Shown here in pieces: positions 111-34,608 of a stretch of DNA of 34,608 nucleotides. The number at the start of each line of letters is the position of its first letter. Within the stretch, counting starts at the first letter, position 1. Position numbers and translations under genes: made by a program. The stretch is from Viridothelium virens (lineage: Eukaryota; Ascomycota; Dothideomycetes; Trypetheliales; Trypetheliaceae), in the NCBI GenBank assembly GCA_010094025.1, contig ML991899.1, positions 1 to 34,608 on the forward strand, read 5' to 3'. Under the pieces are notes generated by a model. That model had not been told where the DNA came from and made no database searches. It saw nothing but the letters and a program-made list of their open reading frames with translations.

Positions 111-256
111 AATATTGATAAACTAGGATCTGTAACTTCATCCATTAAATATAATAATTTAAAGGATGGAAATGCTATTAAAATTAGTATAAGTGCTGGT
201 GTAATTGTTCATATTAATTCTATTAAAGTTCCATGGTTAAGATATTTATTACTTAT
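111..256 (-). pseudogene. cox2: cox2-like 5' segment (partial; terminal piece or duplicated fragment)
   Basis: Read on the minus strand, this segment encodes the second transmembrane helix of cytochrome c oxidase subunit 2 (NKYLNHGTLIELIW, then [13 protein letters not shown], then [12 protein letters not shown]), with TGA as Trp. Bases 111-144 are identical to 34575-34608, where the genuine cox2 continues with the copper-site domain. Below 111 the reading frame leaves cox2 ([10 protein letters not shown], then stop). Upstream of about 256 the frame turns into a Lys/Arg-rich string (KRKRKRNKEG) that is not cox2 and reaches a stop near 340 without an ATG. Either the circle closes through 34608/144 and this is the real 5' half of cox2 with its beginning missing, or it is one of many duplicated gene fragments in this genome. 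Both fit the sequence. Confidence 0.75.
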
Positions 257-388
257 AAAATTTAATCATCCTTCCTTATTTCTTTTCCTTTTCCTTTTCC
301 TTCACCTTGTACTTGATCTGTCGTTACTTTATCTGTCGTATAAAACAAACTCATTAAATTTTTTTGTAAGAGGTGTTTCTGCAGTGTC

Positions 389-2021: not shown

Positions 2022-2177
2022 TTAAAACCCTAAAGCTGTACCAAATATAGGATATAATCGTAAAAATTTTTTAATATTATTTAAACTAAAATACCCTTGA
2101 AACAAGCAATAGAAAAATATAGTACTAGGTACTATAATATATAAATTTAAAGAATCGAAATTAATCAATTTAGACAT
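2022..2177 (-). CDS. Small chimeric ORF, 51 aa, carrying the cox3 start and leader
   Basis: It begins ATGTCTAA, and the sequence before it (2178-2205) matches the leader and start of cox3 (32507-32560): gacatattatc, a T run, then tatatcaca. After the start the protein differs from Cox3. It has one hydrophobic segment (residues about 12-27, LYIIVPSTIFFYCLF) followed by a basic stretch (NNIKKFLRLYP), ending ALGF. The size and the hydrophobic-then-basic layout are those of fungal Atp8, but the usual MPQL start is absent. I consider atp8 a weak possibility only. More likely it is a novel ORF that captured the cox3 leader. Confidence 0.4.
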   Translation of the reverse strand: MSKLINFDSLNLYIIVPSTIFFYCLFQGYFSLNNIKKFLRLYPIFGTALGF

Positions 2178-2665: not shown

Positions 2666-3810
2666 CTATTCTTTAAAAAATAGTAATTTTATTTAAAGCA
2701 AGGTTTGTTACTTATAATTTTAAATCAGTTTTTGAATAACTTGCTCTAAATTATTATTTGTACCTAAATTATTATTTGTATCCACCTTTAGTTATGTTGA
2801 GGCGATTCGAACACCCAATAATAAATACCAAAAATTTATGACTTACCTATTAGTCGACAACATATTTTTATAGAATTTTTTATATAAAATTTTAATTATT
2901 GAATCCTTTTTAATTTAAATTTATCACCCTAAATTTTTCAATTATTAATATCTCTTAATTTTAAAGATCTGCCTACACTTAATGAATTAGCTGCTTTTCT
3001 TACACTGCTAAATTTGTATTTAACTATAACATTACAATCTAATACTAGTAATATTGTCGATTTAGATTTTTCTCGTCATAATGACTAGAAATGTTTTCAG
3101 GATAAATATTACTAGAATAATACCTGCTAGTTTCATTTACTTTAAAATATCAACTGTTATTTCACAAGATCTCTTTATTTAAATTAATACTAACAGTAGA
3201 AAATAATATACCAAAAAAATTAGAGTTAGCTTTAATAATATTTAAATATTAAAAATTTTACAGGTTTTTTATCAAAAGCATAAAAAAAAACACCTTTATT
3301 ACATCTTATTAATATAATAATAAGAGATAATTTACTATTACCTTATTCATATGCGTAGTATGTAAAAGTATTTGTAAAGATTTACCTATACGGTAATTAC
3401 CTATTTTTAATATACTATCAATTTTATGTTTATATCCTAACATAGAGCCAACTGTTTATTAATATTGAAATAAGGTTTGTATTTATCCAAGTAAAACTGC
3501 TCTCTCTCTAACAACTTTATTTTGTTCTTAACAATGATATTAGTAGAGGGAAAACTAACATATTCCAGTAAACCAAACTATAAGTTATTTCAGCCATACT
3601 TATACACTAACCTATACAACTTAGAAATATAAAGATTAGGTTTAAAAAAATTGTATTTATACTTTGCAAGACGATTATTTATATTAATAGCTGAACCAAT
3701 ATACATTATAGACTTATCAATTTTAAACCTGTATATATAAATAGCTGAACCTCTAATTAAGGTTTTGTTATCTTGACTTATAGTTAATCCATTTATATCA
3801 ATATTATATC
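2480..3810 (-). pseudogene. Decayed GIY-YIG homing endonuclease
   Basis: Minus-strand translation from about 3790 gives a GIY-YIG core, SAIYIYRFKIDKSIMYIGSA, then NNRLAKYKYNFF and, after a stop, EREQFYLDKYKPYFNIN, which matches the order of motifs in this nuclease family. Further down come MLGYKHKIDSILKI, SSVRKAANSLSVGRS and the DNA-binding-like tail at 2600-2660. The frame is broken by several stops and shifts, so this cannot make a full protein. No intact group I intron or interrupted host gene is apparent around it. I read it as the corpse of a former intron or free-standing element between trnT-like and trnL sequences. trnQ at 2794 sits inside its span, which suggests rearrangement. Confidence 0.7.
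2794..2863 (-). tRNA. trnQ: tRNA-Gln(TTG)
   Basis: Acceptor ATGTTGT/TCAACAT with one T-T mismatch at its base. D stem GACT/AGTC. Anticodon stem TAAAT/ATTTA with loop TTTTGGT gives TTG. T arm GGGTG-TTCGAAT-CGCCT. It lies inside the span of endonuclease remains. Confidence 0.85.
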
Positions 3811-3829
3811 ATTTTACTTTTTTCCATAT

Positions 3830-3912
3830 ATAGGTAACAAGACTTGAACTTGTAAGGATATTAAACCAATCCGTCCTAAGCGGATCCTGTTTGCCAATTT
3901 CAGCACACCTAT
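3830..3912 (-). tRNA. trnL: tRNA-Leu(TAG)
   Basis: Class II tRNA with a long variable arm. Acceptor ATAGGTG/TACCTAT. Anticodon stem ATCCG/CGGAT, loop CTTAGGA, anticodon TAG. T arm contains TTCAAGT. Confidence 0.9.
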
Positions 3913-3999
3913 TTTTATATAAATATATTATATGTAATATCTTAAAAATTTAAAAATAGTACTAATTATTAAAAAAATAATAATGAAAAAAAAAAGATT

Positions 4000-4083
4000 T
4001 ATGCTATCTTAGGTTTTGCCTTTTCAGAAGCAACATGTTTATTTGCTCTTATGATGGCTTTTTTACTTTTATATGTTGCTTAA
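4000..4083 (+). pseudogene. atp9: Inverted fragment of atp9 (3' end)
   Basis: On the plus strand this encodes [19 protein letters not shown] and then FLLLYVA plus TAA, almost identical to the C-terminal 27 residues of Atp9 at 8705-8929. The preceding A-run puts the nearest ATG (3983) out of frame, so it cannot be translated as Atp9. It is the clearest plus-strand gene fragment in the window. The few differences are mostly at third positions plus Gly to Cys in the loop, suggesting a moderately recent inverted copy. Confidence 0.85.
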
Positions 4084-4160
4084 TTACGAATGTTGTCATA
4101 AACAATGTATTTAGAATACAAACCTAAGTGATGAAAAATGATACCACTCTTATAGTTGGT

Positions 4161-8130: not shown

Positions 8131-8346
8131 CCATAATATTTTCTTTATATACTTATTATCATAATAATTAATGATAAAATAATATATTTTATATCGTATA
8201 TATTATTATTATATATTATTAAAAAAATTTTAAAACATTATACACTATTCTTTATTAATAAAGATAAATATATTATGTAAAGACTTTACATTATTTTTTT
8301 TTTTATTTATTTTTTTTTACATTATACTTAATTAGTTATTATTATT
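8131..8346. other. AT-rich rnl upstream spacer with duplicated block
   Basis: No gene is seen. The last 95 bases (8250-8346), including two long T runs and ttacattatacttaattagttatt, recur at 18310-18421 in front of the second trnP. The rnl promoter probably lies here, but I cannot point to a motif. Confidence 0.6.
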
Positions 8347-8418
8347 CGGGTTATTATGATTTGAACATAACAATGCCTCATTCCAAATGAAGTGCCTAAC
8401 CTACCTGGCTTTAACCCG
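8347..8418 (-). tRNA. trnP: tRNA-Pro(TGG), copy A
   Basis: Acceptor CGGGTTA/TAACCCG. Anticodon stem CTTCA/TGAGG, loop TTTGGAA, anticodon TGG. T arm TTATG-TTCAAAT-CATAA. A near-identical copy is at 18422. Beyond 8418 the shared block includes only the 3' end of trnS(TGA), so this is probably the duplicate and the copy at 18422 the original. Confidence 0.88.
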
Positions 8419-8704
8419 TATAATACAAAGAATATCTGATTTAGCCTATCATTAGGTTTATCTACATTTTGTAGGTAGGTACTGCCTATAACGAAAGTTA
8501 TAATATTTACTTTTCTTCTAAAACCATTAAGATTACTTGTTCTTATTGTAATCTATTTAATTATTCCGTAGAAATTAACCACATAATTACCTGTATCTTG
8601 TTTAACTTTATCTATATTAGGGTTACAATCAGTAGCATAATCTATCTTTCCTGCAGAATGGGTATTTTCTGCATGAAAGAATAAAGGACAAATCAGGATC
8701 AGGA
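8418..8704 (-). other. atp9-rnl spacer with truncated trnS and a broken reading frame
   Basis: Bases 8426-8443 match the 3' end of trnS(TGA) at 18502-18525 and then diverge. Downstream of the atp9 stop, one frame reads through about 95 codons with a single TAG: HAENTHSAGKIDYATDCNPN, then VKQDTGNYVVNFYGIIK, stop, then FRRKVNIITF and VIGSTYLQNVDKPN. The last part has an inverted relative on the plus strand at 26310-26385 (IGSIYLQYVDITKGR). It is not recognised and may be the decayed end of a former ORF next to atp9. Confidence 0.5.
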
Positions 8705-9120
<416 letters not shown>

Positions 9121-9507: not shown

Positions 9508-10233
9508 TAAAAAAAAAAGTTTTTATTTCTTTTTAAGTATTATTACTTATATTTTTATAAATATTTTAGCTTTTTTACACAGAGATATTATATATAAAGC
9601 ATAACCTTTATATTACAGATTTAATAAAACTAAAATAAGTTTAACTATTAAAGTTTACATAGATAAGATCTTTATTATAATACTACTATAATAAAACCTG
9701 TTATAACTAGTAATAATAGCTATATTAATATACGTTATATTTTTATACTAGCTTTTTATTTAAAAGTATTTATTAAAAAGTAATATTTGTTATAAAAGCT
9801 AAAGGTATACTATTGTTTGTTTCAGTTAAAGCTTATAAACTTATATTAACCTATTTAATTGTTAATTATAATAAAATATAACTAATATAAATATTAAAAA
9901 TGAGATAAAACTCAAACGATATTTTATATAAACAAGTATACTTCTTATGTTAATAAACTTGGTAAACTAAACCCTAAATACTACTAATAATTAGTATAGC
10001 TAAAATAACTAAATATAAAAATTTTTTTAATTATTTATTTTAATTTAATATAGGTTTAAAGTATTTTACAAAATTATCTTACATAAGTATTTAGTTAGAA
10101 TATCTGTATATAAATTAACCTAAAGTAACTAATAGTAATATTATAATGTATTAATATATAATATAATGTATTAATACAGATATTACATATAAAACTATTA
10201 AATTATTTTTAACATTTATATAGATTATTAAAA
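9508..10233. other. 726-bp AT-rich spacer holding a nad6 fragment
   Basis: No intact gene or RNA is seen. Bases about 9795-9850 (aaagctaaaggtatactatt, then gtttcagtt and cttatattaa) match the interior of nad6 at 33215-33274 on the minus strand, where they encode SELITETNNSIPLAF. The rest is AT-rich with short direct repeats, such as atataatgtattaata near 10144-10175. Confidence 0.7.
9795..9850 (-). pseudogene. nad6: nad6 internal fragment
   Basis: This is a partial copy of about 56 bases of the segment around residues SELITETNNSIPLAF of Nad6, diverged and without flanking nad6 sequence. It is another example of fragment dispersal in this genome. Confidence 0.7.
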
Positions 10234-12901: not shown

Positions 12902-13329
12902 ATGAAAGTAATAAAAAAAAATAGATTAAAAATATAAAGTTTTTAGTCTATTTAAAAATAAGTTTAGAACTATATTAATATTTATTATATTTAGTATATT
13001 TAAATTTGTTATATTTTGATATGGTTGTATGTATATTACACTATATAAATTTATTATTATTTTTTNNNNNNNNNNNNNNNNNNNNNNNNNNNNNNNNNNN
13101 NNNNNNNNNNNNNNNNNNNNNNNNNNNNNNNNNNNNNNNNNNNNNNNNNNNNNNNNNNNNNNNNNAAAAAAAAAAAAAATAGAGTTTTTATTTATTTTAT
13201 TTGTAATAGTATATACCTTACCTATGTATATATTGTTTTTACGAAAGCATTTTACAAGATAATAACGAGAATGGAATAACACTATGTATTATGCGGCTTT
13301 TGTAATATCTATCTATTATTTACTTTCAT
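12902..13329. other. Spacer with 100-N assembly gap
   Basis: Bases 13066-13165 are N, a round number that suggests a scaffold gap of unknown true size. It is flanked by a T run on the left and a run of 14 A on the right, so a homopolymer or repeat probably broke assembly. The visible flanks are AT-rich with no gene. Apparent open frames across the gap are artefacts. Missing items such as the cox2 5' end could in principle lie here, though nothing shows it. Confidence 0.9.
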
Positions 13330-14498: not shown

Positions 14499-15152
14499 TT
14501 AATTTTCACTATTATTATCATTACTTTCATCTAAATCCATCTCACTAACATTATCTTGTTCCTGACTAGGATTTTCAACATAAGGTGTAACAGGACTACC
14601 ATGATGTCTACCACAATTAACGCATTCAAAAGACGGATCCTCTACCTCTAATTGTATATTATCAATATCGGTATTACCGTCTTCATAACGTTCAGGATGC
14701 TCAATTTTATCATAACAATGGTTACAATAAATTTCAGGTGGATCCTCTACATCGCTTTCTGAATTACGAGCATCAGGTCAGGTAGGATCTGGTCAATTTT
14801 CACGATCAGATTGATCAGGGTTTGATGATTCTTCCATACCAGGAAAATCCTCCATACCAGGAAAATTATTATTATCCCCATCATTATCAGGACGAAAAAA
14901 AAAATCTGTCATATTAAAAAAGTCACTATTAGCTAATAAATAAGAAAGGTCCTCTACAAAATGGTAAAGAAAAAAAGATTCTAATATATTATTAGATAAA
15001 AATATAAAAAAAATAGCATCATTAAAAACAAATATTAATATAAAAGGGAATAATAAAACAATAACACAAAAATGCGTTATAAAATAAAACCGTACCAAGT
15101 TTAAACAAAAAATACCTTTATTCAATAAAATCTTACCTAATCTTTTTAACAT
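14499..15152 (-). CDS. Hypothetical membrane protein with acidic tail and CxxC pairs, 217 aa
   Basis: Not recognised. The ATG is at 15152 and TAA at 14499; TGA is read as Trp twice (ENWPDPTWPDAR). Residues about 20-75 are hydrophobic (FITHFCVIVLLFPFILIFVF and DAIFFIFLSNNILESFFLY), giving two likely membrane segments. The rest is strongly acidic: a short repeat FPGMEDFPGMEE, then DPPEIYCNHCYDK and, about 30 residues on, FECVNCGRHHGSP. The last 25 residues are almost all Asp/Glu/Ser/Asn. Two CxxC pairs could bind a metal as a zinc ribbon, which is inference. It lies 41 bases downstream of nad3, so it could be transcribed with nad2-nad3. The layout matches ORFs at 17515-18222, 28063-28392 and 389-1170. 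Confidence 0.65.
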
Positions 15153-15589: not shown

Positions 15590-17296
15590 TTAATAATTAA
15601 ATAATACAAGTGACAGAATTCCTGCTGTGTTGATTCATTCATTGGGTAATAAGATAAATAATAATATTATATATGTTATTATTGAAATTATAATTGTTAA
15701 TGAGCTTGATAGTGTAATATTTTTTATATCACTACTTATCTCATATTCTGTTGTATCAAAAAACATTTGTTTTATAATAGCTAAATAGTATACAGCACTT
15801 ATAACACTTGTTATAATAGCTACTAAGGACATAAAAATATAACCATTGTTTATAGCAGCACTTAATACCATTTGTTTGGCAAAGAATCCTATTAAAGGTG
15901 GTATACCTGCAAAAGAAAATAAGGTTATTGCTAAACTTAAAGCCATTATAGGGTTTATATAAAAGTATCCCTTTATTTGATTAATTAATTGTATTGGTGA
16001 GTTATTTTTGTCTAATAAACTCTCATATTTCTTATTAGTATTAACATAATGATATAAAGAATAACCTATGCTAATTAGTATTATAAAAGCATTTAGATTA
16101 GATAATGAATATTGCATTAAGTAAAAAATAAATGCTTGTATTGATTCAATACTGTAAATACTTAAGGATAATAATATAAAACCTAAATGTGATATTGTAC
16201 TATAAGCATATAATCTTTTTATTCTAGTTTGGGTTAATCCTACTATAGTACCTATAATTAATGATAAAAAAGAACTAATTAATAAGTTTAAACTCCAGCT
16301 TATATTAAAATTAAATAAAGAATTACTAGTATAATTAGTCAATTCTAAAAAAAATATAAATATAGAAATTTTTGCTATTATTGCTACATAGGTTGTAACT
16401 ATTGTAGGTATAGCATCATAAACATCTGGAGCTCAAAAATGAAAAGGTGCTGCACTTACCTTAAATAAAAACCCTATACTCATTATAAGTAAAGAAAAGT
16501 GTATATAATATGGTTTATATCATACCAAATTAGATAAATTACTATTATTTACAATTTCAGATATACTTGTTACTATATATAGTCCATCTAAATTAGTAAT
16601 TCCTGAGTTTGCATATAATAAACTTATACCTAATAAAATAAAACAAGAAGATAAACTACCTAATAAAAAATAGGTAAGACCACCTGATGTAGCCAATTCG
16701 GAGTTTCTATATAATGTAGATAATAAATATAACCCATAACTCTGCAATTCTATTGATAAAAAAATAGATACTATGTCGTTACTACTAATTAACAGTATAG
16801 ATCCAATTATAACAAAAAGTATTATAAGTGAATACTCAATTATTTTAAATTGTTCTCCATATTTATTTAATATTTTTTGATTTTGAGTTTTCTGATTCAG
16901 GATTATTCTTCCAGAGTTTTCTTTGTTATTCCTTTCACTACTTACTTCATCTTCTATGTTTTTATTGCTTTCATCCTTTTCTATTATCTTTTCACTAATT
17001 AAAGTAGAGGTAGTACTAACAAACTTTCTAGGATAAAAGCTTGTTAAATTTAAGATTAAAATACTTAAAAAAAAAATAAAAAGATGAAAATATGTACTAT
17101 TAGATGTTATATTAAATAAACCACTGTAAAGACCTACACCTTTATTTATTTCTTGAAAAAACAAAGTAAAATAATTTTGTATAAAGGCATACGAAAATAA
17201 TAGTATTGTAGACCTTGAATATAGAATACTTTTATCTTGCCTGGAAGTAACCCCACTTGATAATAATTGATAAGGGAGTGTATATAATAAAATTAT
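15590..17296 (-). CDS. nad2: NADH dehydrogenase subunit 2 (non-ATG start)
   Basis: Membrane-arm antiporter-like subunit of complex I. The frame, with TGA as Trp (NLVWYKPYY and LPNEWINTAG), runs to TAA at 15590. Motifs include [73 protein letters not shown] and [17 protein letters not shown]. There is no ATG before about residue 265. Family-like N-terminal sequence extends far upstream ([20 protein letters not shown]), back to a TAA at 17297, so the start must be non-ATG. I place it at the first possible codon, ATA at 17296; ATT or TTA just after, or TTG at 17164, are alternatives. Residues about 95-150 form a hydrophilic insertion ([20 protein letters not shown]). Its 5' end is copied at 18230-18295 and 34075-34165. 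Confidence 0.92.
17200..17296. repeat. nad2 5' end, copy 1 of a three-copy repeat
   Basis: The segment tatataataa preceded by gataataattgataaggga and ttacttccaggcaagataaa (minus strand) recurs as a shorter piece at 18230-18295 and a longer diverged one at 34075-34165. All are in the same orientation. Confidence 0.8.
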
Positions 17297-17514
17297 TTAT
17301 TAATATACTATCTTAATAAATAAAAAAGATATCATTGTATTTTTAAAAGAATAAAACCTTTATTATGTATTTATAAATTTATTTAATACTATATTTATAT
17401 AAATATACTATAATTTAATCATACTAATTTAGGTAAAAAAAGTATCACGTAGTAAATACAGCTCCCATACTTAATACATACGTAGTAAGTTATACCTGCT
17501 CATTGATTAATATA

Positions 17515-18222
17515 TTAATCATCTGATCCTATATAGTCAGGGAATTCTGTACTTAAATCCGCGAATTCATCTAATAAAGATTCCTTTTTATTTTTATTTT
17601 CTTCCTTATAAATATAACTCTCCTTATTATTATTATCAGGGCAATTTACTTCTTCATTCATAGAACCCTCCTTATTATCTTTGTTGTTTTCAGGGAAATT
17701 TACTTGTTCAGCTGTAGGTGTACCTGGATATGAAGGAGCATCTTCATCTCTACAATCTTTACATATAAGTGCAAAACATATATCACATACATAACAGGAA
17801 TCCCCTTCTCTTTCTACCGCGGGATGTCTATTAGGCTTTATTTCTTTATCCTGGATAGATTTACCTTGTTCTGATTCAAAATCTGAAGCCATGTCACACA
17901 AGTTAGGATCAGTGGTATCTCTTTCATCTGCTTGGTACATAGACAGCTTTTCATGTTCACAGTTTCCTGCTTTTTTTCTTCAAGCAGTTTCAGCATCTAA
18001 ACCTTCGTTATTTGTTTTATTAGGATTAGTATCTATTCTAAGTTTAGGTTTTTCAGATGGAAACATATTAACAGGAGTAGGGGTTATACATAAAAAATTA
18101 TAACTAAATTTATCCTTATCGGATGTAACAAGATCACAATAATTATTCTCAATTTCTATTAAAAACATAAATAAAAATATAAATAAATATGTTGTTAAAT
18201 TTAATAAAATACTGTTGTTCAT
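17515..18222 (-). CDS. Hypothetical membrane protein with acidic, Cys-rich tail, 235 aa
   Basis: Not recognised. The first ATG is at 18222; the frame continues upstream to a TTG at 18309. TGA is read as Trp in ETAWRKKAG, joining what would otherwise be two ORFs. The N-terminus has one hydrophobic segment (SILLNLTTYLFIFLFMFLIE), then a hydrophilic region with KPKLRIDTNPN, a clustered-cysteine motif SCYVCDICFALICKDCRDED (five Cys in 12 residues), and an acidic tail ending LSTEFPDYIGSDD. Four or more Cys could bind metal. The upstream piece (LLYKFSYLLLSSGVT) is a copy of the nad2 5' end, so this ORF may be expressed with nad2-type signals or start in nad2 sequence. It shares the membrane-plus-acidic-tail layout with 14499-15152. 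Confidence 0.65.
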
Positions 18223-18229
18223 GTTATAA

Positions 18230-18295
18230 ATACTAATAGTAACTCCACTTGATAATAATAGATAAGAAAATTTATATAATAAGATTTTTATAAAA
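18230..18295. repeat. nad2 5' end, copy 2
   Basis: On the minus strand it reads ttatataaattttcttatct then attattatcaagtggagtta, corresponding to nad2 5' codons [15 protein letters not shown]. It abuts the ORF at 17515-18222. Confidence 0.8.
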
Positions 18296-18309
18296 TATAT
18301 ATTTAACAA

Positions 18310-18421
18310 TATTTTATAAAATTTTTATTAATAAAGATAAATATATTATGTAAATACATTACATTCTTTTTTTTTTTATTTATTTTTTTTTTTACATTAT
18401 ACTTAATTAGTTATTGTTATT
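18310..18421. repeat. Spacer block shared with 8250-8346
   Basis: It includes attaataaagataaatatat, two T runs and ttacattatacttaattagt. With trnP and the 3' tip of trnS it forms a duplicated block of about 250 bp (8250-8443 and 18310-18525). Confidence 0.85.
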
Positions 18422-18493
18422 CGGGTTATTATGATTTGAACATAACAATGCCTCATCCCAAATGAGGTGCCTAACCTACTTGGCTTTAACCCG
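18422..18493 (-). tRNA. trnP: tRNA-Pro(TGG), copy B
   Basis: Acceptor CGGGTTA/TAACCCG. Anticodon stem CCTCA/TGAGG is fully paired, better than copy A, with loop TTTGGGA, anticodon TGG. It lies beside an intact trnS, so it is likely the original. Confidence 0.92.
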
Positions 18494-18501
18494 TATAATA
18501 C

Positions 18502-18585
18502 AGAGAATATCCGATTTGAACGGATGTAGTTTTTAAACTAAATAAGTTTCAAGCTTATCACCTTAAACCCCTCGGTCAATTCTCT
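18502..18585 (-). tRNA. trnS: tRNA-Ser(TGA)
   Basis: Class II tRNA. Acceptor AGAGAAT/ATTCTCT. Anticodon stem ATAAG/CTTAT, loop CTTGAAA, anticodon TGA. Long variable arm. T arm ATCCG-TTCAAAT-CGGAT. Confidence 0.92.
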
Positions 18586-18707
18586 TATAATTTTTTTTTT
18601 ACATATTTGGTATTATGCGCTATACTACCATCGTTTGTAGAGATTTTCTTATAAAACCCAATATGACTATTAAAAGTGTTAGTATAAATTTAATTTAAAT
18701 CTACATA

Positions 18708-18929
18708 TTATTTAAATAAATCCTCTCTTAGGGGTCAACTACGCAAATTTTTGTAAATAGGTTGTCTTGCAGATATAATTTTTAAATAATTAGCTGCTTT
18801 GATTGTACCTTGATTTGCTTTTTCTTCTAAATCCTCATTTATCTCAGCAGCCATTGATGCATTATTATTACAAATCTCGTAGACTTGTACCATCTTTCCT
18901 TTTATCTGAATTAAATCCGTCATAGACAT
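18708..18929 (-). CDS. Hypothetical ORF downstream of and in frame with cox1 (73 aa from ATG)
   Basis: Not recognised. The frame begins immediately after the cox1 TAA (18990) and is the same frame as cox1, giving 93 codons. Possible starts are ATG at 18929, ATG at 18923 or GTG at 18944. The sequence is hydrophilic and helical-looking: AILAITYQGDILTVALENMS, IKGKMVQVYEICNNNASMAA, INEDLEEKANQGT, then ARQPIYKNLRSWPLRED with Trp encoded by TGA. It aligns along its length with the ORF at 25646-25987 (AYQSDV..., IYIDFNAKAS, LEDKINKE, LRHPIMRSHVRWPLEGG). Base composition is less AT-rich than the spacers. It might be made as its own protein or be the remains of a cox1 3' fusion. Two related copies beside respiratory genes argue against chance. 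Confidence 0.55.
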
Positions 18930-18989
18930 ATTTTCCAAGGCCACAGTAAGAATATCGCCTTGATATGTTATAGCTAATATGGCATCAAG

Positions 18990-21597
<2,608 letters not shown>

Positions 21598-21642
21598 TCA
21601 TAATGATATTGAACTACTTTTTAGTATTTTATAATTAAGCAT

Positions 21643-21832
21643 TTTGTTAAAAAATTGAATAAGTAAATTTAGACTTTATAATTATATAGATAAATATTCG
21701 TATTTTAATACTCAATACTCTCTTATTTTTAGTCAAGTAAAATATATATATTAATTAAATGTTAAAAATATGTATGAAAGTTAACTAGATATCGTTTTTG
21801 ATAAAAAAAAATATATAAACATAAATCTATAA
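21643..21832. promoter_or_regulatory. cox1 5' leader region
   Basis: AT-rich, about 190 bases between trnC and cox1, without tRNA or ORF. It likely contains the cox1 mRNA leader. No defined promoter motif was identified. Confidence 0.4.
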
Positions 21833-21907
21833 AGAGATATGAAGGAATTGAACCTTTAATTTATCTAATCTGCAATTAGAGTGTAAAACCTTTTACTACA
21901 TATCCCT
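21833..21907 (-). tRNA. trnC: tRNA-Cys(GCA)
   Basis: Acceptor AGGGATA/TATCTCT with one G-T pair. Anticodon stem TCTAA/TTAGA, loop TTGCAGA, anticodon GCA. T arm AAAGG-TTCAATT-CCTTC. Confidence 0.88.
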
Positions 21908-22169
21908 ATGTATAAATAAAAATATATAGGTATATATACAAAATATGTTTATTTAAATTACTTTGGATATAAATAAGGATGTTTCTATTAAATAAATATT
22001 AATTTATCTTTTTAAAAAGCGTATAAAGGCCTTATCTCTCATAATCATATAACAAATCTATAATTTTTATAATCTTTATTTTCTATAAAATACCAAAGTT
22101 TTTACTTAAATTATTTATTTAAGTGATTGTTGACTTTCTAATAATAATCACAAAGTAAGATAAATATAC

Positions 22170-22239
22170 AACGTGTATAAGATTTGAACTTATGCTATTA
22201 TGGCCGTATCATAATATTCTACCATTAAATTAACACGCT
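22170..22239 (-). tRNA. trnR: tRNA-Arg(ACG)
   Basis: Acceptor AGCGTGT/ACACGTT. Anticodon stem TTATG/CATAA is perfect, loop ATACGGC, anticodon ACG. T arm ATAAG-TTCAAAT-CTTAT. It reads CGN. Confidence 0.87.
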
Positions 22240-22247
22240 TAAATTAC

Positions 22248-22317
22248 GCCTCTAATATGAATCGAACATATATAGGGTTATTAACAGTAACCTGCTCTAC
22301 CTTTGAGCTATAGAAGC
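22248..22317 (-). tRNA. trnN: tRNA-Asn(GTT)
   Basis: Acceptor GCTTCTA/TAGAGGC. Anticodon stem GGTTA/TAACC, loop CTGTTAA, anticodon GTT. T arm contains TTCGATT. Confidence 0.9.
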
Positions 22318-22334
22318 TATTAAATTTTATAAAT

Positions 22335-22406
22335 AAGAAATAAGTGATTTGAACACCCAATCTTCCGTGTGTAAAACGGCTGCTCTACCTATTAAGCTAA
22401 TTTCTT
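22335..22406 (-). tRNA. trnV: tRNA-Val(TAC)
   Basis: Acceptor AAGAAAT/ATTTCTT. Anticodon loop TTTACAC, anticodon TAC, stem CCGT/ACGG plus a G-A mismatch. T arm GGGTG-TTCAAAT-CACTT. Confidence 0.88.
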
Positions 22407-22499
22407 AATTTTATTAAATATTATTTACTATTTAAATTTAACAAATATATTATATATATAATATTTATTATATTTATGTTTACCAATTTAATAGTTGTT

Positions 22500-22830
22500 T
22501 TAAAGCTGGTGTATAAAGTTACCACCTTGATTAGTAAAGGCTATAAAACCTATACCCATAGTAGGACATATATGCTTAACAAGAGTCTTATATATATGTT
22601 GCCTAGTTTCATGAAATAGATATCTTTCATCCATTATTTCTTGAAATGTAATTTAACTTTAATTACTACACTGTGCGGCAGCCGTCATAGCTTTTTTAAA
22701 ACAATTTCAAAAACTATAGACTTGGTCTGTTAATGGGGCTACATCTGCATATACTGTTGTAATTAATTCACCCTTAAATAAATATATAGCAAAACAATGG
22801 CAATGTGTAGTAATGCAGCAACCAGTAAAT
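22500..22830 (-). pseudogene. Broken ORF behind a copied cob 5' end
   Basis: One minus-strand frame spans this region with two close stops (TAA AGT TAA near 22660). The first part reads GCCITTHCHCFAIYLFKGEL, then TTVYADVAPLTDQVYSFWN and CFKKAMTAAAQCSN. After the stops come QEIMDERYLFHETRQHIYKT and CPTMGIGFIAFTNQGGNF. Composition is more GC-rich than the surrounding spacer. It shows a weak resemblance to the ORFs at 18708-18987 and 25646-25987: AI...KGELITT against AITYQGDILT, and EIMDERY against EMMDLRH. I treat it as a possible third, decayed member. Not otherwise recognised. Confidence 0.45.
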
Positions 22831-22873
22831 AAAAATATAATCTTAATAAAGGATTACTTTTAAGTATTATCAT
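22763..22873 (-). CDS. Chimeric mini-ORF starting with cob codons, 36 aa
   Basis: It begins MIILKSNPLLRLY, matching the Cob N-terminus [13 protein letters not shown], then continues as a hydrophobic stretch (FYLLVAALLHIAIVLLYIYL) and stops. The first 36 bases and the region upstream (to about 22940) copy cob (29640-29763). It would encode a single-helix membrane peptide under cob leader control. Expression is unknown; it may simply be debris. Confidence 0.4.
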   Translation of the reverse strand: MIILKSNPLLRLYFYLLVAALLHIAIVLLYIYLRVN

Positions 22874-22942
22874 TTTTTATAGTAATATTTAATATATTAT
22901 TATATTAATTTGTTTTATTATACTATTTTTATTAAATATTAT
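22836..22942. repeat. Copy of the cob 5' end and leader
   Basis: It shares taaaggattacttttaagta with the cob start region and ttttgttttattatactatt then tttattaaatatta with the leader at 29727-29763. Same orientation as cob. Confidence 0.85.
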
Positions 22943-23155
22943 TTATTAATTATAATATATATAAAAATATAATATATTTATAATATATATATAATATATT
23001 TATAATATACTCTAACTAAAGAGCTATGAAACATAACTTTAATATTATACTTTTTTATTTAAACATTACCTTTTAAAGGTAATAAAGTAAGTTTATAAAT
23101 ATAAAATTATATTAGATATATAGAAAACTTTTATTATTTATCTTTTTTATTTAAT
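22943..23155. other. AT-rich spacer downstream of nad5
   Basis: Contains simple repeats of atataata (22960-23010). No gene seen. Confidence 0.6.
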
Positions 23156-25114
23156 TTAACTAGTGATAGTTAATAATCCAAATATTATTATAATTAATAA
23201 TATGCTATTTATAATAGATAAATAAGGGATTAAAATATAAAAAATTAAACAAATTAAAATATATAAGGCATATGATGTAATAATACCTGTATCTAAACTT
23301 GCTATATTTCTACTTAAATTAACTAAACCTAATTCTAGACCATAAGGACCTAATAACTCTATCGAACCTTTATCAATAACTTTAGTAGTTTGTCCTCCTA
23401 GCTTTAATATTAAGTTAGTTATATAGTTATTGTAGAAAAGTTCAATTAGAAACCGTTGATTAAAAAAACCATATATATTATAACCTAAATTAGATAATTT
23501 AAAGTTTACTACAAGTTTTTCTAAATATTCTAAGGAAAATATAGAAAGTATACTTAATGATACAGTAAATATTAAAGGTATTAGTTTAAATAGTAAAGGT
23601 ACAGCAAATTCAGTGTTTAATAAAATTTCATTTAAAGGATGTATAAATAAACTATTATCAGAAAAAAAGTTAGAACCTAATCCTATAAAAATATCTTTAG
23701 TTATATAACCAAAAAATATAGAAAACAAGGCTAATATAATTAAAGGTAAACTCATAAAAATATCTCCTTCATGTGCATTTTTATAATTAATTAAAGGTCC
23801 ATTAGGATTTGTTAAAAAAGTTAAATATAAAACTTTAATAGAATACAAGGTAGTAAACATAGCACCAATAGTAGCTATAAAATATACAACTGTACTAGAA
23901 AAATAAAATTGCCCATATGCTGACTCAAGTATAAAATCTTTAGAATAAAACCCTGTCATAAATGGAAATGCAACTAAACTAAGAGATGCTATTAACATAA
24001 CAGAGTATGTTAAAGGTAAAAATTTTATTAATGCTCCATATTTTCTAAAGTCTTGATTATCTGATACAGCATGTATTACAGCACCTGCCCCTAAAAAAAG
24101 TAATCCTTTATAAAAAGCATGGTTAATTAAATGAAATAATGCTATATTATAACAAGATAAACCTACAGCTATAACCATCATACCCAATTGACTCATTGTA
24201 GAATATGCTATAACTTTTTTAATATCTTGTTGAAATAAACCAATTAGTGAACTAAATACAGTAGTAAATGCACCTATTCATAAGCAGAGTATTAATACTG
24301 TTGAACTATATTCTATTAAAGGAGAAGCACGCATTAATAAATAAACACCTGCTGTTACCATGGTAGCGGCATGTATTAAAGCACTAACAGGTGTTGGACC
24401 CTCCATAGCCATAGGTAATCAAACATGTAATCCTACTTGAGAACTCTTAGCCATAGCACCAATTAACAAACAAACACCAATTAAAGTAATTATATTTTCA
24501 CTCATATACGGAGATAGTGAAAATACTGTTGAATAATCAATGTTACCAAAACACCATATCATAACAAACATACCTATTGTTAAAAAACAATCTCCTACTC
24601 TATTGGTTAAAAGTGCTGAAATGGAACTTTGGTTTGCAGCTATTCTAGTAAATCAAAAACTTACTAAAAGGTATGAACAAATACCTACACCTTCTCATCC
24701 CACAAACATTAATAAGAAGTTATTAGCTGTAACTAGGATAATCATCATAAAAGTAAATAAACTTAAATAGCTAAAAAACCTTTGATTATGTGGATCATTA
24801 TTCATGTAACCTATTGAATATATATGTACTAAAAATGAAATAATTAATACAGGTATTAACATAGATACTGTTAAGCTATCAAAATTAAAACCTCATCATA
24901 TATTTATTGATTCAGAATCAATTCATTTAAATACCTCAATCGATACAGGTATATTATTAAATCCTACTTCAAAAAATACAATTATTGCTAAAATTGTTAT
25001 TATTAATATAGAACTAGATGCTATTAATTGTGCACCTTTTACTCCTATTTTTCTACCAAAAAACCCACACAAGATTGACCCTAATAAGGGTATTATTATT
25101 ATTGATAAATACAT
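23156..25114 (-). CDS. nad5: NADH dehydrogenase subunit 5
   Basis: Largest antiporter-like membrane subunit of complex I, with the long lateral helix at its C-terminus. It is 652 aa from an ATG at 25114, with many TGA-coded Trp ([33 protein letters not shown]). Motifs: [66 protein letters not shown] with [14 protein letters not shown], and [18 protein letters not shown]. The C-terminal amphipathic and hydrophobic part is present ([11 protein letters not shown], ..., [13 protein letters not shown]). Its ATG overlaps the nad4L stop by one base, the usual nad4L-nad5 coupling. No intron. Confidence 0.97.
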
Positions 25115-25383
25115 TATTTATATTCTATAGCTATACTTCCTCTTAATCTATAAAATGCTACTAATATACCTAAACCTATAGCAGATTCTGCTCCAGCTAT
25201 AGAGATAATATATATGGCATATATTTGACCTAATATGTCATCAAAAGTTAATGAGCTTATTAAAATTAAGAATGTAATAGCTAGTAACATAATTTCAATG
25301 GATATAAGCATTAAAATAATATTTTTTCTATTTAAAACAAAACCTAATATACCTATTAAAAATAGTATTAGTGACAAATTCAT
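25114..25383 (-). CDS. nad4L: NADH dehydrogenase subunit 4L
   Basis: Small complex I membrane subunit, 89 aa, three hydrophobic helices. Conserved [17 protein letters not shown] and [19 protein letters not shown] with the buried acidic residue (AGAESAIG). Starts ATG at 25383. Its TAA shares the A with the nad5 ATG, suggesting translational coupling. Confidence 0.97.
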
Positions 25384-25446
25384 CTTTTTTTTTTATTTAT
25401 ATTATATATCAATAGTAAAAAGTTAATCTATTTACTAACTTTCTTT

Positions 25447-25518
25447 AAGAGCTACAGGTTTCGAACCCATATCATGGTGATTAAAAGTCACATACTTTAC
25501 CTATTAAGCTAAGCTCTC
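25447..25518 (-). tRNA. trnK: tRNA-Lys(TTT)
   Basis: Acceptor GAGAGCT/AGCTCTT. Loop CTTTTAA gives TTT, stem GTGA/TCAC plus one mismatch. T arm ATGGG-TTCGAAA-CCTGT. Confidence 0.87.
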
Positions 25519-25548
25519 TTAACATCATTATTTATGACGTAGCTATAA

Positions 25549-25640
25549 TTATGCTTGTAGCCTCTGAAAAGGCAAAACCTAAGATAGCATATGAAAAGAA
25601 TTGCCCTATTAAAACAGGATTTATAGATATACCTGAGATA
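25549..25640 (-). pseudogene. atp9: atp9 3' fragment following the ORF at 25646
   Basis: Encodes SGISINPVLIGQFFSYAILG and FAFSEAT, then leaves Atp9 (SIIIATS, stop). It corresponds to codons about 37-60 of atp9 with several substitutions (Ala-Arg-Asn to Ser-Ile-Asn) and lacks the end. It is in frame with, and separated by a TAA from, the upstream ORF. Confidence 0.85.
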
Positions 25641-25645
25641 AATAG

Positions 25646-25987
25646 TTAACCTTTTGTATAAAATTTACCATAAGTACGAGTATATATACCATCAGCGTTA
25701 CCACCTTCTAGTGGTCATCTAACATGACTTCTCATTATAGGGTGTCTAAGATCCATCATTTCTAAATACATAGCTATTCTACTATTTTCTTTGTTTATTT
25801 TATCCTCTAATGCTATATTATTAGAATCAGAGACAAATGAAGCTTTAGCATTAAAATCTATGTAGATTTTTGAAAAATTAGACATAAGATGATATGTACT
25901 TAGTTGGTCGAAATTATTAATAAGTACCAAAATAACGTCTGATTGATAAGCAACTTGTTGCATATAATCAAGAACAGGATTTACCAT
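25646..25987 (-). CDS. Hypothetical ORF inserted in a copy of atp9, 113 aa
   Basis: Not recognised. It starts at an ATG (25987) directly after a copy of the atp9 leader and ends TAA at 25646, where an atp9 3' fragment continues in frame. It therefore occupies the place of the first 35-40 codons of an atp9 copy. TGA is read as Trp (RSHVRWPLEGGN). The sequence is soluble-looking: PVLDYMQQVAYQSDVILVLI, FSKIYIDFNAKASFVSD, IALEDKINKENSRIAMYLEM, MDLRHPIMRSHVRWPLEGGN, then DGIYTRTYGKFYTKG. It is a homologue of the ORF after cox1 (18708-18987). An intact frame, two copies and a borrowed leader suggest a real gene, possibly expressed with atp9 signals, which is inference. Confidence 0.6.
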
Positions 25988-26220
25988 AAATGCTTTATAT
26001 AATTTACATAGTATTTTATATGAATCTAATATAAATTAAAAAATAAAAATTTTAAATATAATTGTATTTTTATATTACTAAATGATAGTATATAGACTAT
26101 TTTGCGAGAAACAAAATTCGTTTACTTGCAGAATTTTTAAATTTAAACTTATTTTCCAAGTTACCCCTCCTGTTTGTGTATTATCTTGTAATATAACTAA
26201 TTCTTATTGTTTCATATATT
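25988..26220. repeat. Copy of the atp9 leader
   Basis: Matches 8940-9120 over about 180 bases: tttacatagtattttatatg, aatctaatataaattaaaaa, attgtatttttatattacta, gactattttgcgag, then diverging. Same orientation as the original. Confidence 0.85.
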
Positions 26221-26385: not shown

Positions 26386-26849
26386 AAAAGTAATAAACAC
26401 AACGCATTAATAAAAAAAAAGGTTAATTACAATAAACATTAAGAGGGATAGGTACTCTATAATACAACAAATTCTTTTCCTATATTAAAAATATATACAA
26501 ACACTAACATAAATAAATATACACTATTTACTTTCACTTACACTAAATAAATTTGTATTAAAAAATTAAATTAATTTATATTAAAAATATAAAAATTTAT
26601 ATTAATTTATATATTTAAGTATATAATAATGGTATATAAACTATTAATAAAATTTTGCACATAAAATTTTTACTTTATGTTATATATACTGTTTTGTTTT
26701 AAAAATTTAACTCTCTATAAATAAAAATTTAACTTACAGTTTAAGCAGCATTAATTTTTCATTTACCTATTAAGGTCTATACCAAAATATTTAATAAGAT
26801 TTAAAATATCACTTAGATGTGAACAATAAATACAATAAATACAATAAAA
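26386..26849. other. 464-bp AT-rich spacer
   Basis: No gene, tRNA or fragment recognised. Low-complexity, for example aatacaataaatacaataaa near 26827-26847 and repeated ttaaaaatataaaaatttat. Confidence 0.6.
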
Positions 26850-27040
26850 ACGTTTAGTTAATATTTTTGATCTATATTTACGCTTTCTAGTTTAACTAAA
26901 GATAATTTTTTGCTATCATATAAAATTAAAGATTAGACATTTAAATTGCTTAATCTTTTTTATCTTTTATATATAGGGATATACTAGGTTGACGTATGCC
27001 TAAATATCTAGCAGCCAACCCTACACTTTCAAAAATAGTA
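26850..27040 (-). pseudogene. Relic endonuclease tail, copy 2
   Basis: Minus strand reads ESVGLAARYLGIRQPSISLY then IKD, matching the tail of the 2480-3810 element (LAARFLGIRQASIYLN). The shared block is about 190 bases. No other nuclease part is adjacent, so only the 3' end was copied or retained. Confidence 0.65.
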
Positions 27041-27181
27041 AGCTAGTGTCTTTTACTTTACTAGAATAACAACGAGAGCCGGTTTTCACGAAAGCGAAAC
27101 GTCTAACTTTTTTACTGGTGTACCCTTTAAGTATCCCATTTTGTCTAAATTAATATTGCCCTGATATAGGTCTATGGTCAA

Positions 27182-28062: not shown

Positions 28063-28392
28063 CTAAATTTCATCAGGAGCTTCAGGAAAACCTGGTCTTT
28101 CAATCTCCTCATCCTCATCATATATATCATCTACATCCCCATACATTGGAGGATATGGATCTAGATCTGGATATGGTGCGGGTTGTGGTTCTGGATATGG
28201 GAATTCTTGCGGTTCTAGAAAATTTATTTGAATAATGATATCTTTAGGTATAAAAAGATCAAAACATAAATAAATTTTACTATATAAATCGTTTATACAA
28301 CTTGAACTAAATAAAGTAAACATATCAATAGGAATAAAAACATAACAGAATAGACAAATTAGAAATATAAATATTATTATATTTTTATTCAA
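28063..28392 (-). CDS. Hypothetical membrane ORF with proline/acidic tail, 109 aa
   Basis: Not recognised. The hydrophobic N-terminus is open only from TTG (28392) or ATA (28401); the first ATG falls inside it, at about codon 24. Residues about 4-22 are a membrane segment or signal-like stretch (IIIFIFLICLFCYVFIPID). After a middle part with two more Cys comes a low-complexity tail: EPQEFPYPEPQPAPYPDLDP, then DVDDIYDEDEEIERP and GFPEAPDEI. It lies between cob and atp6 on the same strand, 129 bases after cob. It shares the membrane-plus-acidic-tail design with 14499-15152, including PGF/FPG-type motifs. Confidence 0.55.
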   Translation of the reverse strand: MNKNIIIFIFLICLFCYVFIPIDMFTLFSSSCINDLYSKIYLCFDLFIPKDIIIQINFLEPQEFPYPEPQPAPYPDLDPYPPMYGDVDDIYDEDEEIERPGFPEAPDEI

Positions 28393-28521
28393 AATTATTA
28401 TTTTTTATAAGGAAAAAAAATATGTTTATTACCAAACATTTATGTATAATATATATATATATAGATTTGTTAATTTGTTAGTTGTTATTTATTTAACTAA
28501 ACTATATATATATATATTTTT

Positions 28522-33959: not shown

Positions 33960-34054
33960 TAGTTATTGCATTTATTGTAAAAATAAACATATAAATGCCT
34001 GTGGCTTAGATGAGCAATTAAACAATATTCTAGAATATTAACACATCTACTTAA
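33960..34054 (-). pseudogene. cox1: cox1 3'-end fragment
   Basis: The minus strand ttaagtagatgtgttaatat then ctagaatattgtttaat matches cox1 exon 2 near 18990-19085 (LLSRCVNSLEWCLN) and stays alignable to the last codons. Here it reads LSRCVNILEYCLIAHLSHRH. It is fused downstream of a nad2 5' fragment. Confidence 0.8.
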
Positions 34055-34074
34055 AAAAAAAGTACAAAAATAAA

Positions 34075-34165
34075 AGTATTGTAGCTCTTGAGTATGGTAT
34101 ACTTTTATCTCTCCTATAAGTAATACCACATTATAATAATAGATATAGGGATGCATATAATAACA
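34075..34165 (-). pseudogene. nad2: nad2 5'-end fragment (copy 3), joined to the cox1 fragment
   Basis: In the nad2 frame it reads LLYASLYLLL, stop, CGITYRRDKSIPYSRATIL, matching nad2 [20 protein letters not shown] and [10 protein letters not shown]. The frame is broken by a stop. In another frame the nad2 and cox1 pieces together form a 65-codon open frame (33959-34156, MHPYIYYYNVVLLIGEIK...), a chance chimera unless expressed. Confidence 0.8.
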
Positions 34166-34171
34166 TTAAAT

Positions 34172-34608
34172 TTATAATTCTTGTAGTCAAATTAAAAATT
34201 TTTCTAAAGAAACAGATTGTATTACTATTGGCATAGAACTATGTAATATACCACATATTTCTGAACATTGTCCATAAAATGTCCCTTCTCTGTTTATAAG
34301 AACAGACATTTGATTTAATCTACCTGGATAAGCATCACATTTAAGACCTAAAGCTGGTGAAGCAAAGGAATGAATAACATCTGCTGCAGTTGTTATAAAT
34401 CTTACATGTGTTAGTTCAGGTAATATAATTCTATTATCTACTTCTAACATTCTTAGTGCTCCGTCTTCTAAGTCTGATTCTGGTACTAAATAAGAATCAA
34501 ACTCTATAAATTCATCTTCATTATTTAAAAAGTCTGGATATTGGTAACTTCAATATCATTGGTGACCTTCTGCTAATATTGATAAACTAGGATCTGTAAC
34601 TTCATCCA
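34172..34608 (-). CDS. cox2: Cytochrome c oxidase subunit 2, 3' part (runs off the window)
   Basis: Electron-entry subunit of complex IV carrying CuA. The window holds the C-terminal ~145 residues: [40 protein letters not shown], then LEVDNRIILPELTHVRFITT, AADVIHSFASPALGLKCDAY and the CuA site FYGQCSEICGILHSSMPI with both Cys and the Glu. It ends KFLIWLQEL at TAA (34172), with TGA Trp. The first ~70 residues (intermembrane N-terminus and first helix) are not present; the second helix is at 111-256 if the contig is circular through the 34-base overlap. Confidence 0.96.
34575..34608. repeat. Terminal overlap, identical to 111-144
   Basis: All 34 bases, starting aatattgataaactaggatc, match 111-144 exactly. 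The base before differs (t against c), and 1-110 has no counterpart before 34575. This could be circular closure with 110 bases of alternative sequence at the left end, or a contig that ended inside a duplicated cox2 segment. Confidence 0.95.

What the first reader, a model, noticed from the sequence alone, without database searches (positions are those of the whole stretch)
17515..26220. Respiratory-gene leaders placed in front of unrelated ORFs (CMS-like chimeric ORFs)
At least four times, a copied 5' leader or start of a respiratory gene stands directly before an ORF that is not that gene: atp9 leader before 25646-25987, cob leader and start before 22763-22873, cox3 leader and start before 2022-2177, and nad2 5' end before 17515-18222. 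In yeast these leaders are bound by gene-specific translational activators (established for cox3, cob and atp9), so capture could give regulated expression. Plant CMS genes have the same architecture. The regulatory role is inference.
Basis: partly seen in the sequence, partly recalled or inferred. Interest (0 to 1): 0.8.

Follow-up and report, generated by a model that had tools for sequence, protein, structure and literature searches.

The report
Borrowed gene starts in fungal mitochondria
In a fungal mitochondrial genome, two intact genes of unknown function carry copied front ends of respiratory genes (atp9 and nad2), probably left by DNA shuffling and probably enough to get them made into protein; the layout resembles plant male-sterility genes, but no such effect is shown.

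Summary
The window is a fungal mtDNA contig (table 4, genes on the minus strand). Strong: the atp9 leader (94% over 122 nt, start codon in register) before ORF113. Strong but different: ORF235 is an in-frame fusion whose first ~40 residues resemble Nad2, so it starts upstream of the quoted ATG. The cob copy is real, but its frame closes after 37 aa and the coding-like sequence behind it is broken. The cox3 copy is ~45 nt and borderline.

ORF113 and ORF235 show gene-like codon usage. ORF113 is a distant paralogue of ORF93, which lies in phase directly behind the cox1 stop. The copies belong to a scatter of ten gene fragments; two related mtDNA contigs lack these ORFs but also lack atp9. Leader-driven expression is inferred: the yeast analogy is weak for cox3 and best for atp9, since a nuclear ATP13/Aep2-family gene is present.

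Chimeric ORFs with respiratory-gene 5' ends are already published in other ascomycetes (Sclerotinia borealis, Stemphylium lycopersici). This is a new variant of a known kind, CMS-like in anatomy only.

The parts
25994..26115 (-). copy of the atp9 leader
   Evidence: 94.3% over 122 nt to 8936-9057; 0 of 60 shuffles
25646..25987 (-). ORF113, starts at the ATG in register with atp9's
   Evidence: codon-usage z 5.1; paralogue of ORF93
25556..25642 (-). atp9 fragment (codons ~31-59) behind ORF113, same phase
   Evidence: 84% to 8753-8839
8705..8929 (-). intact atp9 gene, source of the leader
18238..18309 (-). copy of the nad2 start (about 26 nt leader plus first codons)
   Evidence: 83% over 75 columns
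17515..18324 (-). open frame holding ORF235; nad2-derived N-terminus, acidic Cys-containing tail; start upstream of ATG 18222 likely
   Evidence: z 5.8 for the part from 18222
15590..17293 (-). nad2, non-ATG start inferred
22838..22944 (-). copy of the cob leader plus 12 codons
   Evidence: 77% over 126 columns
22500..22873 (-). 37-aa frame from the copied cob start, then coding-like sequence in another frame with stops (broken)
   Evidence: z 1.9, 2.5, 3.1 for the three pieces
18708..18989 (-). ORF93, in phase directly behind the cox1 stop, paralogue of ORF113
   Evidence: z 3.7
2022..2177 (-). 51-aa ORF behind the borderline cox3 leader match (match 2212-2162)
   Evidence: z 2.4
34063..34175 (-). 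second nad2 start copy, directly behind cox2, interrupted by a stop
   Evidence: 81% over 114 columns; stop in frame
33974..34069 (-). cox1 3'-end fragment
   Evidence: 79% over 98 columns
17398..17480 (-). cox1 internal fragment between ORF235 and nad2
   Evidence: 73% over 93 columns
4000..4084 (+). atp9 3'-end fragment, inverted
   Evidence: 92% over 85 nt
9771..9877 (-). nad6 internal fragment
   Evidence: 77% over 110 columns
111..262 (-). cox2 fragment
   Evidence: 90% in protein over 42 residues; last 34 nt identical to the cox2 at the other contig end

Best explanation
Recombination or repair in this mtDNA scatters pieces of respiratory genes, roughly 35 to 150 nt long, into spacers. 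Where a piece holds a gene start it can put a foreign reading frame under that gene's expression signals. Two such products are intact and gene-like: ORF113 behind the atp9 leader, and ORF235 fused in frame to the nad2 start. Both are most likely transcribed and translated through the borrowed start. The cob product and the second nad2 copy have decayed. Shown: the copies, their register, the open frames, the codon usage, and the paralogy of ORF113 with ORF93 behind cox1. Inferred: expression, control by the source gene's factors, and any role in the cell.
For: Copies beyond chance for atp9, cob and nad2 (0 of 60 shuffles each). Open frames of 113 and 235 codons have chances of 2e-5 and 2e-10 at the sampled spacer stop rate of 9.1%. 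Codon usage z 5.1 and 5.8; mean score 0.104 for ORF113 lies in the range of the 14 core gene pieces scored with each left out (0.099-0.353), 0.051 for ORF235 just below it. ORF113-ORF93 score 114, shuffle maximum 56 of 2000; similarity above neutral simulation, 0 of 600 in each of two models. The atp9 leader copy is better kept (115 of 122) than the atp9 fragment behind the ORF (73 of 87), Fisher p=0.019. Starts are over-represented among ten fragments: 3 by the strict rule, expected 0.77, P=0.036; 4 with the second nad2 copy, P=0.0035. A nuclear ATP13/Aep2-family gene is present.
Against: No expression data. Counted dN/dS of ORF113 against ORF93 is 0.91, probably saturated. Gene conversion could explain the well-kept leader. 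The start enrichment is small and after the fact. In codon-usage scoring one antisense frame comes close to the sense frame, and for ORF235 slightly above it (0.069 against 0.051), although that frame has 6 stops and such a shadow is common in the core genes. Two relatives lack the ORFs, so they are young or dispensable.
Confidence: 0.55

Rival explanations
1. Neutral debris: gene fragments are scattered at random, some happen to carry a start, and the ORFs are fading relics of other elements that do nothing.
For: Ten fragments at 50 bits or more, most without a start; the cob product and the second nad2 copy are broken; truncated copies are common in Mycosphaerellaceae (2 to 12 per mtDNA, PMC7999263, passages); a relative shows fragment scatter without such ORFs.
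Against: ORF113 and ORF235 are far longer than chance and have gene-like codon usage; ORF113 and ORF93 keep a protein similarity above neutral simulation.
Confidence: 0.27
2. Remnants of mobile ORFs of the Allomyces/Glomus kind: an element inserted into a respiratory gene, carrying a replacement gene end.
For: ORF113 is followed in phase by an atp9 remnant, and ORF235 stands between two nad2 starts; a broken GIY-YIG relic lies at 3949-3581 (E=0.00099, just under Pfam's cut-off) and a NUMOD1-like piece at 3084-2932 (E=0.029).
Against: Neither ORF113, ORF93, ORF235 nor ORF217 matches any Pfam family at E up to 1, so no endonuclease domain, while the cox1 intron ORF is recognised as LAGLIDADG (E=5.4e-24); the ORFs sit behind gene starts, whereas the published cases carry a gene's 3' end (PMC3630166, passages).
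Confidence: 0.12
3. Assembly artefact: false joins at repeats made the chimeras.
For: The contig has a 100-N gap at 13066-13165; it is cut within cox2, whose first ~67 codons were not found in the assembly.
Against: False joins give identical copies; nine of the ten fragments differ from their source by 6 to 27%, only the 34-nt cox2 piece is identical.
Confidence: 0.05

Closest known systems
Sclerotinia borealis mtDNA ORF0044 (PMC4162613, passages)
   Same: a second atp9 copy (96%) joined to an unrelated coding tail beside an intact atp9
   Different: there the whole atp9 coding sequence without stop runs into a 213-aa tail; here the leader without atp9 codons stands before ORF113, and the atp9 remnant follows it
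Stemphylium lycopersici nad2 duplication (PMC5626475, section 18)
   Same: nad2 5' end joined to sequence of unknown homology, in a Dothideomycete
   Different: 558 nt at 99.6% with a stop at codon 17 there; about 40 codons, diverged and open, in ORF235
Truncated copies of conserved genes in Mycosphaerellaceae mtDNA (PMC7999263, passages and section 15)
   Same: partial copies of atp9, nad2, cob and cox1 beside intact genes
   Different: no intact unknown ORF behind a copied start was described in what I saw
mORF gene hybrids of Glomus and Allomyces (PMC3630166, passages)
   Same: foreign ORF in phase within a duplicated respiratory gene, atp9 among them
   Different: those encode endonucleases and carry 3' gene ends; these show no endonuclease domain and carry 5' ends
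Plant CMS chimeric ORFs (recalled; only search listings seen)
   Same: respiratory gene start or leader plus unknown ORF; ORF235 has a hydrophobic N-terminal segment
   Different: no phenotype, restorer or expression known here; ORF113 has no such segment by the same measure

Membership tests
Plant-CMS-type chimeric mitochondrial ORF | chimera of a respiratory gene start or leader with an unknown ORF | tested here: met
   atp9/ORF113 and nad2/ORF235
Plant-CMS-type chimeric mitochondrial ORF | hydrophobic membrane segment (common, recalled) | tested here: inconclusive
   ORF235 yes (2.23), ORF113 no (1.05), Kyte-Doolittle 19-residue windows
Plant-CMS-type chimeric mitochondrial ORF | expressed, causes sterility, countered by nuclear restorers | not testable with these tools
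   no expression or genetic data
Mobile ORF (mORF) gene hybrid | ORF encodes a homing endonuclease | tested here: not met
   no Pfam match at E up to 1 for ORF113, ORF93, ORF235, ORF217
Mobile ORF (mORF) gene hybrid | inserted in phase in a gene together with a duplicated gene end | tested here: inconclusive
   atp9 remnant in phase behind ORF113, but 5' rather than 3' ends are carried
Truncated copies of conserved mitochondrial genes | incomplete copy beside an intact gene | tested here: met
   ten fragments; for cox2 the intact gene itself is cut by the contig end
Leader-specific translational activation as in yeast | nuclear activator for the copied leader | tested here: inconclusive
   ATP13/Aep2-family gene present; binding not testable; cob and cox3 activators not searched

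The most novel reading that the evidence does not exclude
ORF113 and ORF93 belong to a fungal mitochondrial gene family that persists by attaching itself to respiratory-gene expression signals (the atp9 leader in one case, the cox1 stop in the other) and so to the nuclear factors of those genes: a fungal counterpart of plant CMS genes, perhaps selfish.
Probability: 0.15. Interest if true: 0.8.

Novelty: new variant of a known kind. Interest (0 to 1): 0.45.

Why it matters
If expressed, a bare atp9 leader in front of a foreign ORF is a natural test of whether a mitochondrial leader alone directs translation in a filamentous fungus. Two paralogous ORFs attached to two different respiratory genes would suggest how unknown mitochondrial genes come to be expressed at all, and would give the layout of plant CMS genes an independent parallel in fungi.

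Tried and rejected
Rejected: homology of the broken cob-start ORF to ORF113/ORF93; it looked good by eye and failed a frameshift-tolerant test (p=0.13 and 0.90). Rejected: an atp6 leader before ORF86 (p=0.008 alone, not significant among 132 leader-ORF pairs). Rejected: a nad2 origin of the ORF217 N-terminus (p=0.31 with the window's Nad2, 0.03 with the relative's). Rejected: homology among the Cys-containing tails of ORF235, ORF217 and a relative's ORF (p>0.35). Led nowhere: two viral-contig scans (no relative), solved structures with the ORF113/ORF93 profile (none), PHROGs and NCBIfam with 7 proteins (nothing below E 0.02), Pfam with the unknown ORFs (nothing over a cut-off), other copies of ORF113 in the assembly (only ORF93). 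Paper searches: (nine of ten used).
Full report
WHAT THE WINDOW IS. The window is contig C129 of a 30.7 Mb, 175-contig assembly. It carries mitochondrial rRNAs, 25 tRNAs found by ARAGORN and respiratory genes on the minus strand, read with TGA as Trp. I take it for a Dothideomycete-like ascomycete by recall of protein sequences; no tool named it. It has a 100-N gap at 13066-13165. cox2 is cut at the contig end, and its first ~67 codons were not found in the assembly by two protein searches.

THE FOUR CLAIMED CASES. Against dinucleotide shuffles the best non-self match of each gene start scores 215 for atp9, 115 for cob and 80 for nad2, never reached in 60 shuffles each; cox3 scores 51, reached in 6 of 60. 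The cox3-ORF match itself (48) is in register and was not reached in 60 shuffles seen from the ORF side. Among 132 leader-ORF pairs atp9-ORF113 stands far out (z 30), cob follows (6.4), and cox3 (5.1) ranks below an out-of-register cob-ORF151 pair (5.5). I call atp9, cob and nad2 real and cox3 borderline.

ATP9 AND ORF113. The copied leader is 94% identical over 122 nt and ends 6 nt before an ATG in the same register. Behind the ORF113 stop, in the same phase, lie atp9 codons about 31-59 at 84%. So a duplicated atp9 has its first 30 codons replaced by an ORF of 113 codons.

NAD2 AND ORF235. The frame is open from 18324. Its N-terminal ~40 residues resemble the Nad2 N-terminus of the window (63, shuffle maximum 55) and of a relative (65, maximum 56), 500 shuffles each. 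nad2 has no ATG near its start in the window or in the relative, so a non-ATG start shared by both is likely (inference). ORF235 thus begins with a Nad2-derived hydrophobic piece and continues as an acidic, Cys-containing tail. It is a protein fusion with little leader (about 26 nt).

COB. The copy covers leader and 12 codons, but the frame closes at 37 aa. The stretches that follow (codon-usage z 2.5 and 3.1) lie in another frame with stops between them. I could not show that they belong to the ORF113 family.

ARE THE ORFS GENES? With codon usage trained on the window's core genes, z against base permutation is 5.1 for ORF113, 5.8 for ORF235, 3.7 for ORF93, 6.0 for ORF217, 5.2 for ORF86, 4.1 for ORF151 and 3.0 for ORF87; the ten core genes shown have 6.2 to 17.9, ORF97 has -0.5, and the ORF behind the cox3-like match 2.4. 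Scored with each core gene left out of training, the 14 core pieces have 0.099 to 0.353 per codon; ORF113 has 0.104, ORF86 0.140, ORF217 0.063, ORF235 0.051, ORF87 0.027, ORF93 0.007 and ORF151 -0.006. One antisense frame comes near the sense frame in these ORFs, for ORF235 slightly above it (0.069, with 6 stops); a weaker shadow of the same kind appears in most core genes. At the sampled spacer stop rate of 9.1%, 113 and 235 open codons have chances of 2e-5 and 2e-10.

A PARALOGUE BEHIND COX1. ORF113 is homologous to ORF93 (18989-18708): E=1.7e-5 in the whole assembly, score 114 against a maximum of 56 in 2000 shuffles. ORF93 starts in phase right after the cox1 TAA, and seven residues shared with ORF113 lie before its first ATG, so it may be read from a non-ATG start, by coupling to cox1, or by read-through (inference). 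The pair's similarity score exceeds neutral simulation at the same DNA divergence (0 of 600 in each of two models; identity p=0.015 and 0.022), yet the counted dN/dS is 0.91 with probable saturation. Selection is likely but not settled.

THE WIDER PATTERN. Ten fragment copies reach 50 bits: three from atp9, two each from nad2 and cox1, one each from cob, nad6 and cox2. Three cover a start by the simulation's rule (at least 20 nt of leader); expected 0.77, P=0.036. With the second nad2 copy, which has only about 7 nt of leader, it is four, P=0.0035. The enrichment is modest and after the fact. A broken GIY-YIG relic (3949-3581, E=0.00099, just under Pfam's cut-off) and a NUMOD1-like piece (3084-2932, E=0.029) show past mobile elements. 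Break repair by copying is a plausible source of the scatter (inference).

RELATIVES. One scan of prokaryote genome contigs gave three loci: two fungal mtDNA contaminants, L015 (nad5 77% identical, best segment) and L016 (82%), and a bacterial homologue. Neither fungal contig matches the accessory ORFs at E up to 0.01, and ORF93 found nothing in their bins. They are a limited test: L016 is 5.2 kb, and neither contig shows atp9 (the bins' matches to Atp9 at 42-47% identity, look bacterial by their low identity). The 27.2-kb contig of L015 has a cox1 3' fragment behind nad3 and a partial tRNA-His duplication, so fragment scatter occurs there without these ORFs.

THE LEADER ARGUMENT. For it: the copied atp9 leader is better kept than the atp9 fragment behind the ORF (115 of 122 against 73 of 87, Fisher p=0.019), and a nuclear ATP13/Aep2-family gene exists (E=4.3e-21). 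Against it: gene conversion can explain the first point, and PMC3978653 (passages and Table 1) lists no COX3 activator outside Saccharomycetes and reports no detected binding of Aep1 to ATP9 mRNA.

KNOWN CASES. Sclerotinia borealis has an atp9 copy without stop running into an unrelated 213-aa tail (PMC4162613, passages). Stemphylium lycopersici has the first third of nad2 joined to unknown sequence, with a stop at codon 17 (PMC5626475, section 18). Mycosphaerellaceae carry 2 to 12 truncated copies (PMC7999263, passages). Glomus has endonuclease-bearing hybrids in atp6, atp9, cox2 and nad3 (PMC3630166, passages). The kind is known. I did not see in these searches a leader-only capture by an intact ORF, or a paralogue of such an ORF behind another respiratory gene.

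VERDICT. Partly confirmed; a new variant of a known kind; CMS-like in anatomy only.

Noticed in passing
1-328 and 34172-34608: A cox2 fragment at one contig end shares 34 identical nt with the cut cox2 at the other; the first ~67 cox2 codons were not found in the assembly.
   Followed up: partly
14499-15152: ORF217 (hydrophobic start, acidic tail with CxxC motifs, z 6.0) overlaps the nad3 stop codon by 7 nt, like a coupled gene.
   Followed up: partly
28063-28404: ORF86 between cob and atp6 is gene-like (z 5.2); its hydrophobic segment lies before its first ATG, so an earlier non-ATG start is likely.
   Followed up: partly
389-1188: Two overlapping frames, ORF87 and ORF151 (z 3.0 and 4.1), stand upstream of the cox2 fragment.
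   Followed up: partly
2929-3949: Broken GIY-YIG endonuclease relic with a NUMOD1-like piece.
   Followed up: partly
2391-2686 and 26785-27041: A 71%-identical spacer duplication, perhaps part of the same dead endonuclease family (weak HTH match E=0.08).
   Followed up: partly
8169-8442 and 18253-18517: tRNA-Pro with its flank is duplicated (85%); both copies are called as tRNA-Pro.
   Followed up: no
1570-1662: Partial tRNA-His copy beside the intact one; relative L015 also has a partial tRNA-His duplication.
   Followed up: no
L016 1-5195: The contig ends share 60 identical nt, as a circle of about 5.1 kb would, and cox1 runs into nad4L in one open frame without a stop.
   Followed up: partly
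L015 5603-5797: A 64-aa ORF behind cob with a hydrophobic start and a Cys-rich end; not shown to be related to ORF235 or ORF217.
   Followed up: partly
1360-1468: The tRNA-Arg stretch matches another contig of the assembly, C17:80697-80803, at 77%.
   Followed up: no
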